A stretch of 64,000 bases of DNA from Austropuccinia psidii (Eukaryota > Basidiomycota > Pucciniomycetes > Pucciniales > Sphaerophragmiaceae), in NCBI GenBank assembly GCA_023105745.1, contig JALGQZ010000015.1, positions 1,738,999 to 1,802,998 on the forward strand, given 5' to 3'. The position numbers and the translations under genes were made by a program. The notes under the pieces were generated by a model. The model was not told where the DNA came from, searched no databases, and saw nothing but the letters and a program-made list of their open reading frames with translations. Below are positions 26,801 through 28,653 of this stretch, in pieces (within the stretch, counting starts at the first letter, position 1; every line of letters begins with the position of its first letter).

Positions 26801-28429
26801 AGTTAAAGGTTTATCTTTCTCTGGGTCAAAGAAAGAGTTTTCAAATGCATTTTCTATCTTATACCTCCAGGCATCATTTGCCCACTTGGTGATTATTTCT
26901 TGTTTCCACCAAGACCAGGTATTTTTACCATTTGTTTGTCTTATGCCATAATACCATCTTTTTGCAGATTTCTCAAACAATGAATGTAATCTTGCAGTGA
27001 TTAATTCATCTGGTATGGCATAGTCTTCTTGTAACATGTCAATTGTTTTAATAAATGACATGTGGTCATATTCACCTTCTCCTGTGAATGTTGGCCATTC
27101 TTTTAATTGAGGTGCCTCCTTCATTAAGACTTGGTTATTATCTTGGTGACTCAAGTCTGTTATGAAAGGATTTGACAATTCCTCTTTTGTTTTAACAGGG
27201 CTTCTTATATGAGAAAATGGTGTTGATAACTTTGGCATATTCAATTTAGCCTCATTAATTTTATCCATTTTTTCAGTAATAAGCCTTATTTCACTTTGAA
27301 TATCATCTTTCAGATGCATTCTTGCTTCATCACTTTTTTCCACATGGTCCAAAAGTAATTTTTGGTGTGATGAAGTCTTTTCTTCAAATTTTTCTACAGA
27401 AATACTTAATTTATTTAATTTTTCTGTAAGATTGTCAATGCTCACATCATAATTGATTGTCAAAGCTTTATCTTTGATATCTTTTATGTATTTATACAAT
27501 TCTTGTTGTCCTTGTATTAATTTTTGAGTATTGTCAATTAAATTCTTTGGTTTATTATTTTCAACAATAAACTTAATGTTGTCAATTTCTTTCTTGTTTT
27601 GTACAACAATTTTTGTTAAAGAAGATAAATTGTTATTTATTTCTTGTAGTGATAATAAACTGTCTTTAATTTCTTTTAGAGGTAATATACTATTTTTAAT
27701 TTCTGTTAAAGTATTTACAACCTCTTTGGACAAGGTTATTTCTTTGGGAAATGAGGTTGTCTCATTCTTTGCTCTTCCTTGTCCTTGAATTCCATCAAGG
27801 TTCTGGCCATGTTGAAAACATTGTCCATGGCATCCTTTTGGATTCTTGGGATTCTGTAGCTTGGGGAATATGGTTTCCTCCAATGCTTTTTCTTGTTCTT
27901 CTTCCCTTCTTGGGGAAGTGGGTTGGCTTGAGGCTTGCTGGTAGAAGCTACTGGGGCTTCTTCCTTGGTTGCCTCCCTCTTTTTGGCATGATAATCCTTG
28001 ATTTTTTTGATTTGAGGTTTGGATGACAGTGGATTCCATCCATTGGAGTATTTCACTATCTCCTCCTCTTTGAGGAACTTTTTCAGGATGTGCCAGGAGT
28101 TCATCACTCCTTGGTGTATTTGAGGCAGCATTTCCCAGTCTTTGTCCTTGTATACTGTGTAATACTGCTTGTACTGGCTCATGTAGATGTCTATTTGAGC
28201 CCTCTGAATGTGATTTGTACCTGTTTGAGTTACTCATACTTAGTTCCAATTCAGGCTCATACATCATGGGCATTTCTGGGACTTGCCTTTGGGATAAGGC
28301 ACTTCCTTGTGTGGATTCTGTTCCACTGGGGATATTGCCCTTTCTTTTCCCTTTTGAGGGATCAATTCTACTTCTGAGTCCAGCTCCATCTGATTGGATG
28401 GAGTATTGGGAACCTCTTCTGGTAGTCAT
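23774..28429 (-). CDS. Element B gag-pol, 1551 codons, frameshifted near the end
   Basis: One continuous ORF from ATG 28429. Residues 1-230 are Q/S/G-rich and overlap a second frame; 230-410 look coiled-coil; capsid starts at WPTFTGEGEYDHMSF (~450) with WSWWKQEIITKWAND; zinc knuckle CHKCGGIGHLANNC (~645); an acidic linker; protease LDTGAYCTCVG (~770); RT with TTPVIITWHNGKSRMVGDF and YIDDIIVCS (~1118); RNase H from LYIDACGEGLGAAL (~1262) and TDCNAVKSLLNMK; then the start of the integrase zinc module (HECHDSVASGHLSEDR). It ends in about 30 aberrant residues because one A is missing near 23880 (AAAACC became AAACC). It shows that gag and pol are one frame in this family, without a gag/pol frameshift site. 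Confidence 0.95.
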   Translation of the reverse strand: MTTRRGSQYSIQSDGAGLRSRIDPSKGKRKGNIPSGTESTQGSALSQRQVPEMPMMYEPELELSMSNSNRYKSHSEGSNRHLHEPVQAVLHSIQGQRLGNAASNTPRSDELLAHPEKVPQRGGDSEILQWMESTVIQTSNQKNQGLSCQKEGGNQGRSPSSFYQQASSQPTSPRREEEQEKALEETIFPKLQNPKNPKGCHGQCFQHGQNLDGIQGQGRAKNETTSFPKEITLSKEVVNTLTEIKNSILPLKEIKDSLLSLQEINNNLSSLTKIVVQNKKEIDNIKFIVENNKPKNLIDNTQKLIQGQQELYKYIKDIKDKALTINYDVSIDNLTEKLNKLSISVEKFEEKTSSHQKLLLDHVEKSDEARMHLKDDIQSEIRLITEKMDKINEAKLNMPKLSTPFSHIRSPVKTKEELSNPFITDLSHQDNNQVLMKEAPQLKEWPTFTGEGEYDHMSFIKTIDMLQEDYAIPDELITARLHSLFEKSAKRWYYGIRQTNGKNTWSWWKQEIITKWANDAWRYKIENAFENSFFDPEKDKPLTWFLKQVERLNALYPEMSQKMVHMKILKKCGGELEHALRSRCIEPCSTEEYINALEDIVTRTKIGRTWKKLDIKSPNKPFIKKDKSKESFKPNTSNNNEQRKCHKCGGIGHLANNCLKKAKINEIVETENHNDKEEESDSEKETEESESSESDESNIINAQINNIDIIYEVLDVNSNLPQVGTSDTNLTNVQDSKMYRTKPAKGMGYTAGKSSISIVMVDNQEGKVNLDTGAYCTCVGKSYLKTIVPDWQEKLMPIQGVKFSSASESMKPLGVIDLTLIFPHPSQCVRIKVEFVVMDNCTSNHFILGNDYLSIYGIDISNQKDRYFTIGDNKRQKFGFLNNKKQITVIKNEEKIPEKELFISEQLKEAEFNQELTEKMKEKLIDLLFKYKNAFATDKEPLGAIIGHEVDIIFNVEKPYPPLLRRPAYPASPRAREALEVHIKELMDLGVLRKVGHNEQVEVTTPVIITWHNGKSRMVGDFRALNTYTIPDRYPIPRIHETLTQLSQAKFITAMDALKGFHQNVLTDNAKKLLRIIVHCGIFEYLRMPFGIKNAPSHYQRMMNTIFPEELSEGWLTIYIDDIIVCSETWDNHLTRLERVLQKIVQVNMKISLKKCHFAYSELKALGHVVSGLSLGIDKNKVAAVLLKPMPQTKKEMQSFLGFAGYYRQHIKDFAKIAKSLYKLCDQQTVYEMTEERVKAYEELKNSLTNAPFLLMPDWKLPFKLYIDACGEGLGAALHQTQIINDKPVEGPICFISRQIKPTEARYGASQMECLCLVWALEKLHYYLDGTVFDVITDCNAVKSLLNMKTPNRHMLRWQIAIQEYRGNMTIVHKSGNIHKNADGLSRWALANTPDNPAWVPQEEHHIEGICVTDIGTEFFNQVKESYKTDKNCHILSQLLMKDCKDPSLSSKLDEIWKKAYDEGRFHLLDGILYHRTKHTCFMALTDRTLINTILHECHDSVASGHLSEDRTLERVKPALGGQIGRKMFQSTAKPVTDVKKPTEPQERNLE

Positions 28430-28653
28430 AATTAAAGAATAAGAAAAAATAAAAGTATTTTAAAATAAAATTCTTTTATGGCAATTTAAAAAGAGGTGCT
28501 CACCTTCAGAGTCTTGAATGGTGGGCCCTGGAAAGTCTAATTTCTTAGCTTTCTTTCTTTTGGTGATAACTGGTGTTGGAGAACTTTGACAAGTTTCTTC
28601 CACCAATCTCTCAACAGTAGCTTGGTTGTCTTCTGTTGGGTTATCTTCAAACA
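27736..28653 (-). CDS. Element B overprinted spliced ORF (+1 frame inside gag)
   Basis: A 148-codon ORF at 28182-27736 lies wholly within gag in the +1 frame. It contains QGVMNSWHILKKFL, NGWNPLSSK, QIKKIKDYH, EEAPVASTSKP, a K-rich basic tract, SYRIPRIQKDAMDNVFNMAR and TLMEFKDKEEQRM, ending FPKK. Inferred exons: 28653-28504 (after TTTGTCTTTTTTAG; starts (G)TG TTT GAA GAT), 28418-28287 (132 nt; contains SNQMELDSEVEL) and 28220-27736. Intron 1 is 28503-28419 (GTGAGC...CCAG, 85 nt); intron 2 is 28286-28221 (GC-AG type, AAAG then GCAAGT...ACAG, 66 nt). All joins keep one frame without stops. The exon with the start codon was not found. No known domain is recognised. Confidence 0.78.

What the first reader, a model, noticed from the sequence alone, without database searches (positions are those of the whole stretch)
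27736..28653. A second, better conserved gene overprinted on gag in the +1 frame
In elements A (4444-5432), B (27736-28653), D (41490-42400) and as a relic in C (7841-8199) the same part of gag is open in the +1 frame. Across families this frame keeps MNS(Y/W), (S/K)FL, GW.PL, (G/S)YRIP(K/R), (V/F)F(N/Q)MA(R/K) and a charged C-terminal helix, while the gag frame over the same bases is Q/S/R-rich and visibly less alike. Stretches of 150 codons shared by three diverged families are hard to explain as chance. Inference: the element makes an accessory protein with a basic, probably nucleic-acid-binding centre.
Basis: partly seen in the sequence, partly recalled or inferred. Interest (0 to 1): 0.9.

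Follow-up and report, generated by a model that had tools for sequence, protein, structure and literature searches.

The report
Spliced accessory gene overlapping rust gag
In jumping elements of a rust fungus, DNA that encodes the structural protein Gag also carries, in a second reading frame, a better conserved coding sequence, which is probably the last exon of a spliced accessory gene whose predicted product would help the element's unspliced RNA leave the nucleus.

Summary
The second reading frame is real, but it is probably not a free-standing +1 gene. The genome matches Austropuccinia psidii. In 39 B copies, changes over the overlap pile up at +1 third positions (1.83 per site against 0.94 and 0.83). 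Omega is 0.26 (0.18-0.37) for +1 and 0.83 (0.59-1.40) for gag (27 copies). Gag amino acids are nearly free there, yet gag-frame stops are avoided. A D subfamily agrees; 30 young A copies are uninformative.

The +1 frame is most likely the 3' exon of a spliced leader gene. Splice-like sites, all in phase 1, join an upstream exon to +1 in A, B and D; the gag ATG lies inside intron 1. The upstream exon has no ATG of its own but is under selection in B (dN/dS 0.35, 0.24-0.51). B introns are neutral or show gag-only constraint.

The closest known system is CERV of nematode Cer1 (PMC10309623), a spliced protein needed for genomic-RNA export. Splicing here rests on sequence and selection, not RNA; the export role is inferred.

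The parts
29168..29467 (-). B element 5' LTR part (300 nt)
   Evidence: 99% identical direct repeat with 20488-20787
20488..20787 (-). B element 3' LTR part (300 nt)
23774..28429 (-). B gag-pol ORF, 1551 aa (CCHC, RT, RNase H, start of integrase zinc domain); its ATG 28429-28427 lies inside predicted intron 1
28504..28653 (-). B accessory gene, predicted exon 1 (starts TG after TTTTTTAG; start codon would be A|TG made by splicing)
   Evidence: period-3 constraint 1.24/1.06/1.90 per site, P 0.001; dN/dS 0.35 (0.24-0.51); open in 28 of 32 copies
28419..28503 (-). B predicted intron 1, GTGAGC...ACCAG, 85 nt, contains the gag ATG
   Evidence: no significant periodicity, 2.34 changes per site; donor GTGAG in 36 of 37 rows with letters
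28287..28418 (-). B predicted exon 2 (132 nt), also gag codons
   Evidence: all codon positions slowed, 1.25/1.05/1.05; per-frame omegas inconclusive
28221..28286 (-). B predicted intron 2, GCAAGT...ACAG, 66 nt, removes the three +1 stops; gag codons
   Evidence: gag-only pattern 0.67/1.33/2.32, P 0.00017; protein P0241 joins exons 2 and 3 here
27736..28220 (-). B predicted exon 3, which holds the +1 ORF of the finding (its in-frame ATG is at 28182)
   Evidence: 1.84/0.96/0.84 by gag phase, P 9e-18; omega of +1 0.26
5274..5432 (-). A predicted exon 1
   Evidence: acceptor AG before it kept in 28 of 30 copies
5208..5273 (-). A predicted intron 1, GTGTGT...ACCAG, 66 nt; holds the gag ATG (5221-5219)
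   Evidence: GT in 29 of 30, AG in 30 of 30 copies
5076..5207 (-). A predicted exon 2, 132 nt as in B
5013..5075 (-). A predicted intron 2, GTCTGT...CCAG, 63 nt; removes two +1 stops
   Evidence: both sites kept in 30 of 30 copies
4444..5012 (-). A predicted exon 3; this copy has a stop at 4737-4735
41490..41687 (+). D predicted exon 1
41688..41751 (+). D predicted intron 1, GTAAGT...ACCAG, 64 nt; holds the gag ATG (41738-41740)
   Evidence: GT in 17 of 17 rows, final G of AG in 15 of 17
41752..42400 (+). D last exon (exons 2 and 3 in one); this copy differs by one base near 42149, so its spliced reading ends early (at 42221) and the listed 310-codon ORF is part gag frame, part +1

Best explanation
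The +1 frame over gag is a conserved coding sequence and is most likely the 3' exon of a spliced accessory gene that would start in the leader of these Ty3/Gypsy elements. Unspliced RNA would be the genome and the Gag-Pol messenger: in window A and B no ATG lies in the 900 nt before the gag ATG, and that ATG lies inside predicted intron 1. Removing intron 1 would delete it, and joining an upstream exon that ends in A to the TG at the start of exon 1 would make the accessory start codon. The accessory protein would enter the +1 frame at exon 2, skip the +1 stops (three in B, two in A) by splicing intron 2, and end at the +1 stop. It is predicted to be basic (about 255 aa in B), with a helical domain in the last exon and, in B, a KRKK motif in exon 1. 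The step I commit to for function is that it binds or escorts the intron-containing RNA so that it leaves the nucleus unspliced, as CERV does for Cer1. Shown: selection on exons 1 and 3 in B, introns without +1 selection in B, avoided gag-frame stops, phase-matched splice-like sites. Inferred: splicing itself, the start codon, the function. My separate estimates: spliced gene 0.85, export role given that about 0.5.
For: (1) B copies (39 rows; 38 in the leader alignment): changes per site by gag-phase position. Intron 0: 1.89/1.80/1.98; exon 1: 1.24/1.06/1.90; intron 1: 2.05/2.61/2.36; exon 2: 1.25/1.05/1.05; intron 2: 0.67/1.33/2.32; exon 3: 1.84/0.96/0.84; gag after the overlap: 1.16/0.85/1.91. 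(2) Exon 1 lies upstream of the gag ATG with no ATG in 900 nt before gag in window A or B, yet in B has dN/dS 0.35 (0.24-0.51, 32 copies) and is open in 28 of 32. (3) Omega in the overlap: +1 0.26 (0.18-0.37), gag 0.83 (0.59-1.40), 27 of 39 rows used. (4) Gag-frame stop-making, +1-silent changes occur at 0.22 (0.09-0.48) of the same-type rate. (5) The five predicted junctions of introns 1 and 2 (two in A, two in B, one in D) are all phase 1; exon 2 is 132 nt in both A and B. Exon 3 homology reaches up to the junction: GTNHIQRAQIDIY in B, GLNHFQVAAIEIY in A. (6) Splice motifs hold across B copies, the common variants being splice-tolerated: GTGAGC/T, GCAAGT (33 of 38 with letters), ACC/TAG, AAC/TAG; A sites 28-30 of 30. 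(7) P0241, annotated in A. psidii MF-1, joins exon 2 to exon 3 exactly at predicted intron 2. (8) Whole spliced ORF open: A 21 of 30 (19 with all splice sites); B 15 of 34 scored (14 with all sites; 5 more dropped as incomplete). Of copies with gag open: A 14 of 17, B 5 of 6. (9) CERV precedent.
Against: No RNA evidence was available. The donor of intron 0, and so the A|TG start, was not located with confidence. The G of that TG is kept in only 33 of 38 B rows. B intron 2 uses the rare GC donor and A intron 2 an unusual GTCTGT. The intron 2 borders were chosen after the sliding window had pointed there. Exon 2 omegas have wide intervals (+1 0.58, 0.33-1.30). Exon 1 peptides are not alike between families (shuffle P 0.46-0.95); exon 2 only weakly (A/B P 0.021). 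The 30 young A copies show no codon pattern in the overlap (20/17/20). D intron 1 does not look evenly free (1.29/0.50/0.57). P0241 is one annotated protein, and the reason for its join could not be checked. No exact intron-free copy was seen among the 38 B loci (L031 lacks part of intron 1), and the genome-wide search for one did not complete. KRKK was seen in B exon 1 only.
Confidence: 0.45

Rival explanations
1. Free-standing overprinted +1 gene: ribosomes on the gag messenger reach an internal +1 ATG by leaky scanning or reinitiation and make the protein from unspliced RNA.
For: An in-frame ATG is kept in B in 36 of 39, A in 28 of 30 and D A5-type in 20 of 20 copies. In the A5-type the +1 ORF opens only 70 nt after the gag ATG and runs 197 codons.
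Against: Leaves selection on the ATG-less upstream exon unexplained. The ATGs are at different places in the families, and in A and B homology continues upstream of B's ATG up to the predicted junction. Counting gag's own, seven ATGs precede the +1 ATG in B and five in A, though only two in the D A5-type.
Confidence: 0.12
2. The spliced gene is real, but its product does something other than RNA export: a Gag assembly or nucleic-acid-packaging partner, a silencing suppressor, or an inhibitor.
For: Basic (pI 9.7-10.0), helical predicted fold, no family match over a curated cut-off; nothing tested function.
Against: The CERV arrangement (spliced, other frame over gag, Gag only from intron-containing RNA) and the need to export such RNA favour an export role, by analogy only.
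Confidence: 0.4
3. Ribosomal frameshifting from the N-terminal part of gag into +1 gives a fusion protein, with no splicing.
For: Constraint passes from the gag frame to +1 near the start of the ORF.
Against: Does not explain exon 1 selection or the conserved splice-like motifs; no shift site shared by the families was seen by eye, and none was searched for by program.
Confidence: 0.02
4. The +1 openness is a side effect of gag codon bias or chance.
For: Synonymous shuffles of gag leave only 2-3 expected +1 stops, P 0.01-0.05 per family.
Against: Substitution pattern P about 1e-17 in B and P 0.0017 for shared variants in the D A5-type; the +1 frame is the better conserved between families.
Confidence: 0.01

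Closest known systems
CERV of Cer1, Caenorhabditis LTR retrotransposon of the Gypsy/Ty3 family (PMC10309623; abstract, found passages and section 15 read)
   Same: Accessory protein from a multi-exon spliced RNA; one exon uses another frame over gag DNA; Gag comes from intron-containing RNA; KRKK motif (here in B exon 1).
   Different: CERV exons 1-3 share the gag frame and its last exon lies after pol; here exon 1 is in the leader, exon 3 ends inside gag, and the gag ATG itself lies in an intron. CERV splicing and export role are experimental; here they are predicted. No sequence relation is claimed.
Rev of HIV-1 and similar retroviral export factors (from PMC10309623 section 15 and recalled)
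   Same: Proposed logic: spliced RNA makes the factor that exports unspliced RNA.
   Different: Position differs; sequence and fold were not compared; no RNA target element was sought here.
Additional ORFs of plant and fungal LTR retrotransposons (PMC7264820; part 1 of 3 of the text and found passages read)
   Same: Extra conserved ORFs in Ty3/Gypsy elements.
   Different: [quoted passage not shown] the word overlap does not occur in that paper. Here the gene is 5', predicted to be spliced, and overlaps gag.
Overprinted genes of viruses (PMC8227390; search listing with start of abstract only)
   Same: Two frames on one stretch of sequence.
   Different: The second frame here is most likely an exon, not a whole ORF with its own start.

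Membership tests
Ty3/Gypsy LTR retrotransposon | gag with CCHC, RT, RNase H, integrase, flanking LTRs | tested here: met
   RT and RNase H over Pfam cut-offs, zinc knuckle 0.1 bit and integrase zinc domain 1.5 bits under theirs in B gag-pol; 300-nt LTR repeat. The Ty3 order of domains was not tested against other superfamilies; the A. psidii genome paper names Gypsy as its main repeat
Overlapping (dual-frame) coding region | selection acts on both frames of the same bases | tested here: met
   +1 omega 0.26; gag frame kept open, though its amino acids are near neutral (omega 0.83 in B, 1.72 in D A5-type)
CERV-like spliced accessory gene | product of a spliced mRNA | tested here: inconclusive
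   splice-like sites, phases and exon/intron selection fit; no RNA
CERV-like spliced accessory gene | an exon over gag in a frame other than gag | tested here: met
   predicted exon 3
CERV-like spliced accessory gene | required for nuclear export of genomic RNA | not testable with these tools
   needs experiment
CERV-like spliced accessory gene | sequence relation to CERV | not tested
   CERV sequence not fetched; the paper says it has no obvious homology outside nematodes
MIT domain (Vps4 type) | match to PF04212 | tested here: not met
   not among the Pfam matches listed at E up to 5 for 4 proteins; PF04212 lists only 4 places in the genome; hhalign probability 1.3 against one yeast Vps4 domain
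MIT domain (Vps4 type) | three-helix MIT fold | tested here: inconclusive
   [not shown]

The most novel reading that the evidence does not exclude
A Rev/CERV-type splicing switch in fungal Ty3/Gypsy elements: the gag start codon sits inside an intron and the accessory start codon is created by the splice itself, so one RNA gives either Gag-Pol (unspliced) or its own exporter (spliced), and the accessory protein, not Gag, dictates the shared sequence. Families with this design include very numerous ones in this gigabase rust genome.
Probability: 0.33. Interest if true: 0.87.

Novelty: new variant of a known kind. Interest (0 to 1): 0.72.

Why it matters
If right, a retrovirus-like choice between unspliced Gag RNA and a spliced regulatory RNA exists in fungal retrotransposons, in families with thousands of first-look candidates in one genome (2949 for A, 5125 for D). 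It would show a shared stretch in which an accessory exon holds the constraint while gag is merely kept open. It makes the question of how these elements export unspliced RNA testable. It also suggests that hundreds of hypothetical proteins annotated in A. psidii (776 clusters matched, the 120 listed all from that fungus) are pieces of one kind of element gene.

Tried and rejected
Frameshift or free-standing ORF: see rivals. The slippery heptamer UUUCCCA near the end of the B ORF was considered and dropped, since A and D were not seen to have it and the gag frame must stay open anyway (read by eye).

MIT-domain homology: suggested by fold searches, not by sequence. No sequence match in the PDB at E up to 5.

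Direction of overprinting by codon usage: gag fits better than +1 in A, B and D, but the unused third frame also does, so no conclusion.

Young A copies: too alike for the codon test. CpG masking did not change the B result. In the stop-avoidance test the G>T class went the other way (68 of 1950 stop-making against 32 of 1872), while C>T and A>T carried the effect. In the D A5-type the shared variants are significant, but all changes together only reach P 0.063. In the first D set (17 rows) the +1 pattern is weak in the 5' part (0.40/0.36/0.52) and clearer in the 3' part (0.60/0.35/0.83).

Other species: the three protein searches list only the best 120 hits, in each case all A. psidii, so the breadth among rusts is unknown.

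Papers: the listings of searches show no description of this gene (titles and abstract starts of the rows listed; most were not opened). PMC8063080 and PMC12210899 (found passages only) have no hit for gag or reading frame. This covers open-licence papers only.
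Full report
WHAT WAS THERE. The window is part of an unnamed 1.015-Gb assembly. The +1 protein of B matches 776 protein clusters; the 120 listed are all hypothetical proteins of Austropuccinia psidii MF-1. Element B runs on the minus strand between 300-nt LTR repeats with one 1551-aa gag-pol ORF carrying RT, RNase H and a borderline CCHC knuckle. Inside gag, 28182-27736 is open in the +1 frame. Two points need correction: the window copies of A and D are not intact in +1 (a stop in A; a one-base difference in D), and the interval quoted for B is not one open frame.

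SELECTION. I used 38 B copies plus the window copy. By parsimony, changes in the overlap fall at gag positions 1/2/3 at 1.83/0.94/0.83 per site; gag position 1 is +1 position 3. Downstream gag gives 1.15/0.86/1.91, and the 171 sites just upstream of gag (later seen to be part of exon 1 plus most of intron 1) 1.70/1.86/1.91. A pairwise two-frame estimate on the 27 fuller copies gives omega 0.26 (0.18-0.37) for +1 and 0.83 (0.59-1.40) for gag in the overlap, and 0.33 for gag after it. So the shared bases are dictated by +1. Gag is not ignored, though: +1-silent changes that would put a stop into gag occur at 0.22 (0.09-0.48) of the rate of same-type changes that do not, and synonymous shuffles of +1 give 4.9-7.0 gag stops in A (copy L048), B and D (copy L077) against none observed. 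A D subfamily without the one-base difference (20 copies) agrees: shared variants 15/5/3 at gag positions 1/2/3 (P 0.0017; all changes together P 0.063), omega of +1 0.44 (0.26-0.78). Between families +1 identity is 41-48% and gag 26-35%, each on its own alignment; gag position 1 is the most variable whichever frame is aligned. The 30 A copies are too young to tell.

FROM ORF TO EXON. Three things did not fit a free-standing ORF. Its ATG differs in place between families. In A and B the protein similarity runs upstream past B's ATG. And in B a stretch just before the ORF shows gag-only constraint. Reading the leaders showed short intron-like stretches. Intron 1: B GTGAGC...ACCAG (85 nt), A GTGTGT...ACCAG (66), D GTAAGT...ACCAG (64); the gag ATG lies inside it in all three. 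Intron 2: B GCAAGT...ACAG (66 nt), A GTCTGT...CCAG (63); it removes the +1 stops, and the D frame has none to remove there. All five junctions are phase 1.

TEST OF THE MODEL. In the B leader (38 rows; one locus too short) the partition gives: intron 0, 1.89 changes per site, no period; exon 1, 1.24/1.06/1.90 (P 0.001 after correction); intron 1, 2.34, no significant period; exon 2, slow at all positions (1.11); intron 2, gag-only (0.67/1.33/2.32, P 0.00017); exon 3, +1-only (P 9e-18). Gag position 3 is slower in exon 2 than in intron 2 (P 0.00015). Exon 1 has dN/dS 0.35 (0.24-0.51) in 32 copies and is open in 28 of 32. It is upstream of gag and has no ATG (window A and B have none in 900 nt before gag; D has one, 456 nt before it), so selection on it is hard to explain without splicing. 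Splice motifs are kept in most B copies, the common variants being at tolerated bases, in A in 28-30 of 30 copies, and in D in 15-17 of 17. The whole spliced ORF is open in 21 of 30 A and 15 of 34 scored B copies; of copies whose gag part is open, 14 of 17 and 5 of 6. One MF-1 protein, P0241, joins exon 2 to exon 3 exactly at the predicted site; I could not see whether that is an annotated intron or an intron-free copy. Against the model: exon 1 peptides do not align between families, exon 2 weakly; D intron 1 is not evenly free; the donor of intron 0 is unknown (A and B share TTTGA|GT as a candidate, seen by eye).

MECHANISM. On unspliced RNA of window A and B no ATG precedes the gag start for 900 nt. 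On spliced RNA the gag start is gone, and the natural start is A|TG across the intron 0 junction, since AG|TG follows a pyrimidine run in all three families. The product would be basic (pI 9.7-10.0 for the exon 3 part), with a helical domain modelled at block-mean pLDDT 78-91 over residues 11-90 of the D-type protein P0159, a low-confidence linker and a C-terminal helix. Because Gag is only on intron-containing RNA, such an element must get that RNA out of the nucleus. CERV of Cer1 does this and is itself made from a spliced RNA with one exon out of frame over gag. I therefore commit to an export or escort role, at lower confidence than the gene structure.

WHAT IS NEW. Extra ORFs in LTR retrotransposons and a spliced export factor in Cer1 are known. 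The listings of my searches (open-licence papers only) show no account of a spliced gene threaded through gag in a fungus. I file it as a new variant of a known kind.

Noticed in passing
near 42149; loci L077-L092: A one-base difference in a G/A run splits D relatives: by the alignment 13 of 16 fetched copies have the window's net length, which joins the gag frame to the 3' half of the +1 frame; many 101-aa MF-1 proteins cover the window D query end to end, and the one printed (P0121) shows the same state.
   Followed up: partly
B overlap, A7 run at alignment position 592 (about window 28009): Insertions recur at a homopolymer in the overlap in several B copies (4 at one place, 3 others beside it), either slippage or assembly error.
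   Followed up: partly
A leader about 395-415 nt and B leader about 555-575 nt upstream of the gag ATG: A block like ACACGTGG.TTTTTCACATCC is shared by the A and B leaders, in a stretch that changes rather slowly in B copies; it may be a splicing or packaging signal.
   Followed up: no
D, 456 nt upstream of the gag ATG (primer-site region): The only ATG within 900 nt upstream of gag in the three window copies lies in D beside the TTTGGGGGCC block.
   Followed up: no
whole genome: First-look candidates were 2949 for the A query, 5125 for D and 39 for B, so copy numbers seem to differ widely between families that share the gene.
   Followed up: no
+1 exon 3 in A, B, D: Third positions of +1 codons are 54-58% GC against 28% in the reference gag-pol codons, as expected if T there is avoided to keep gag open.
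   Followed up: partly
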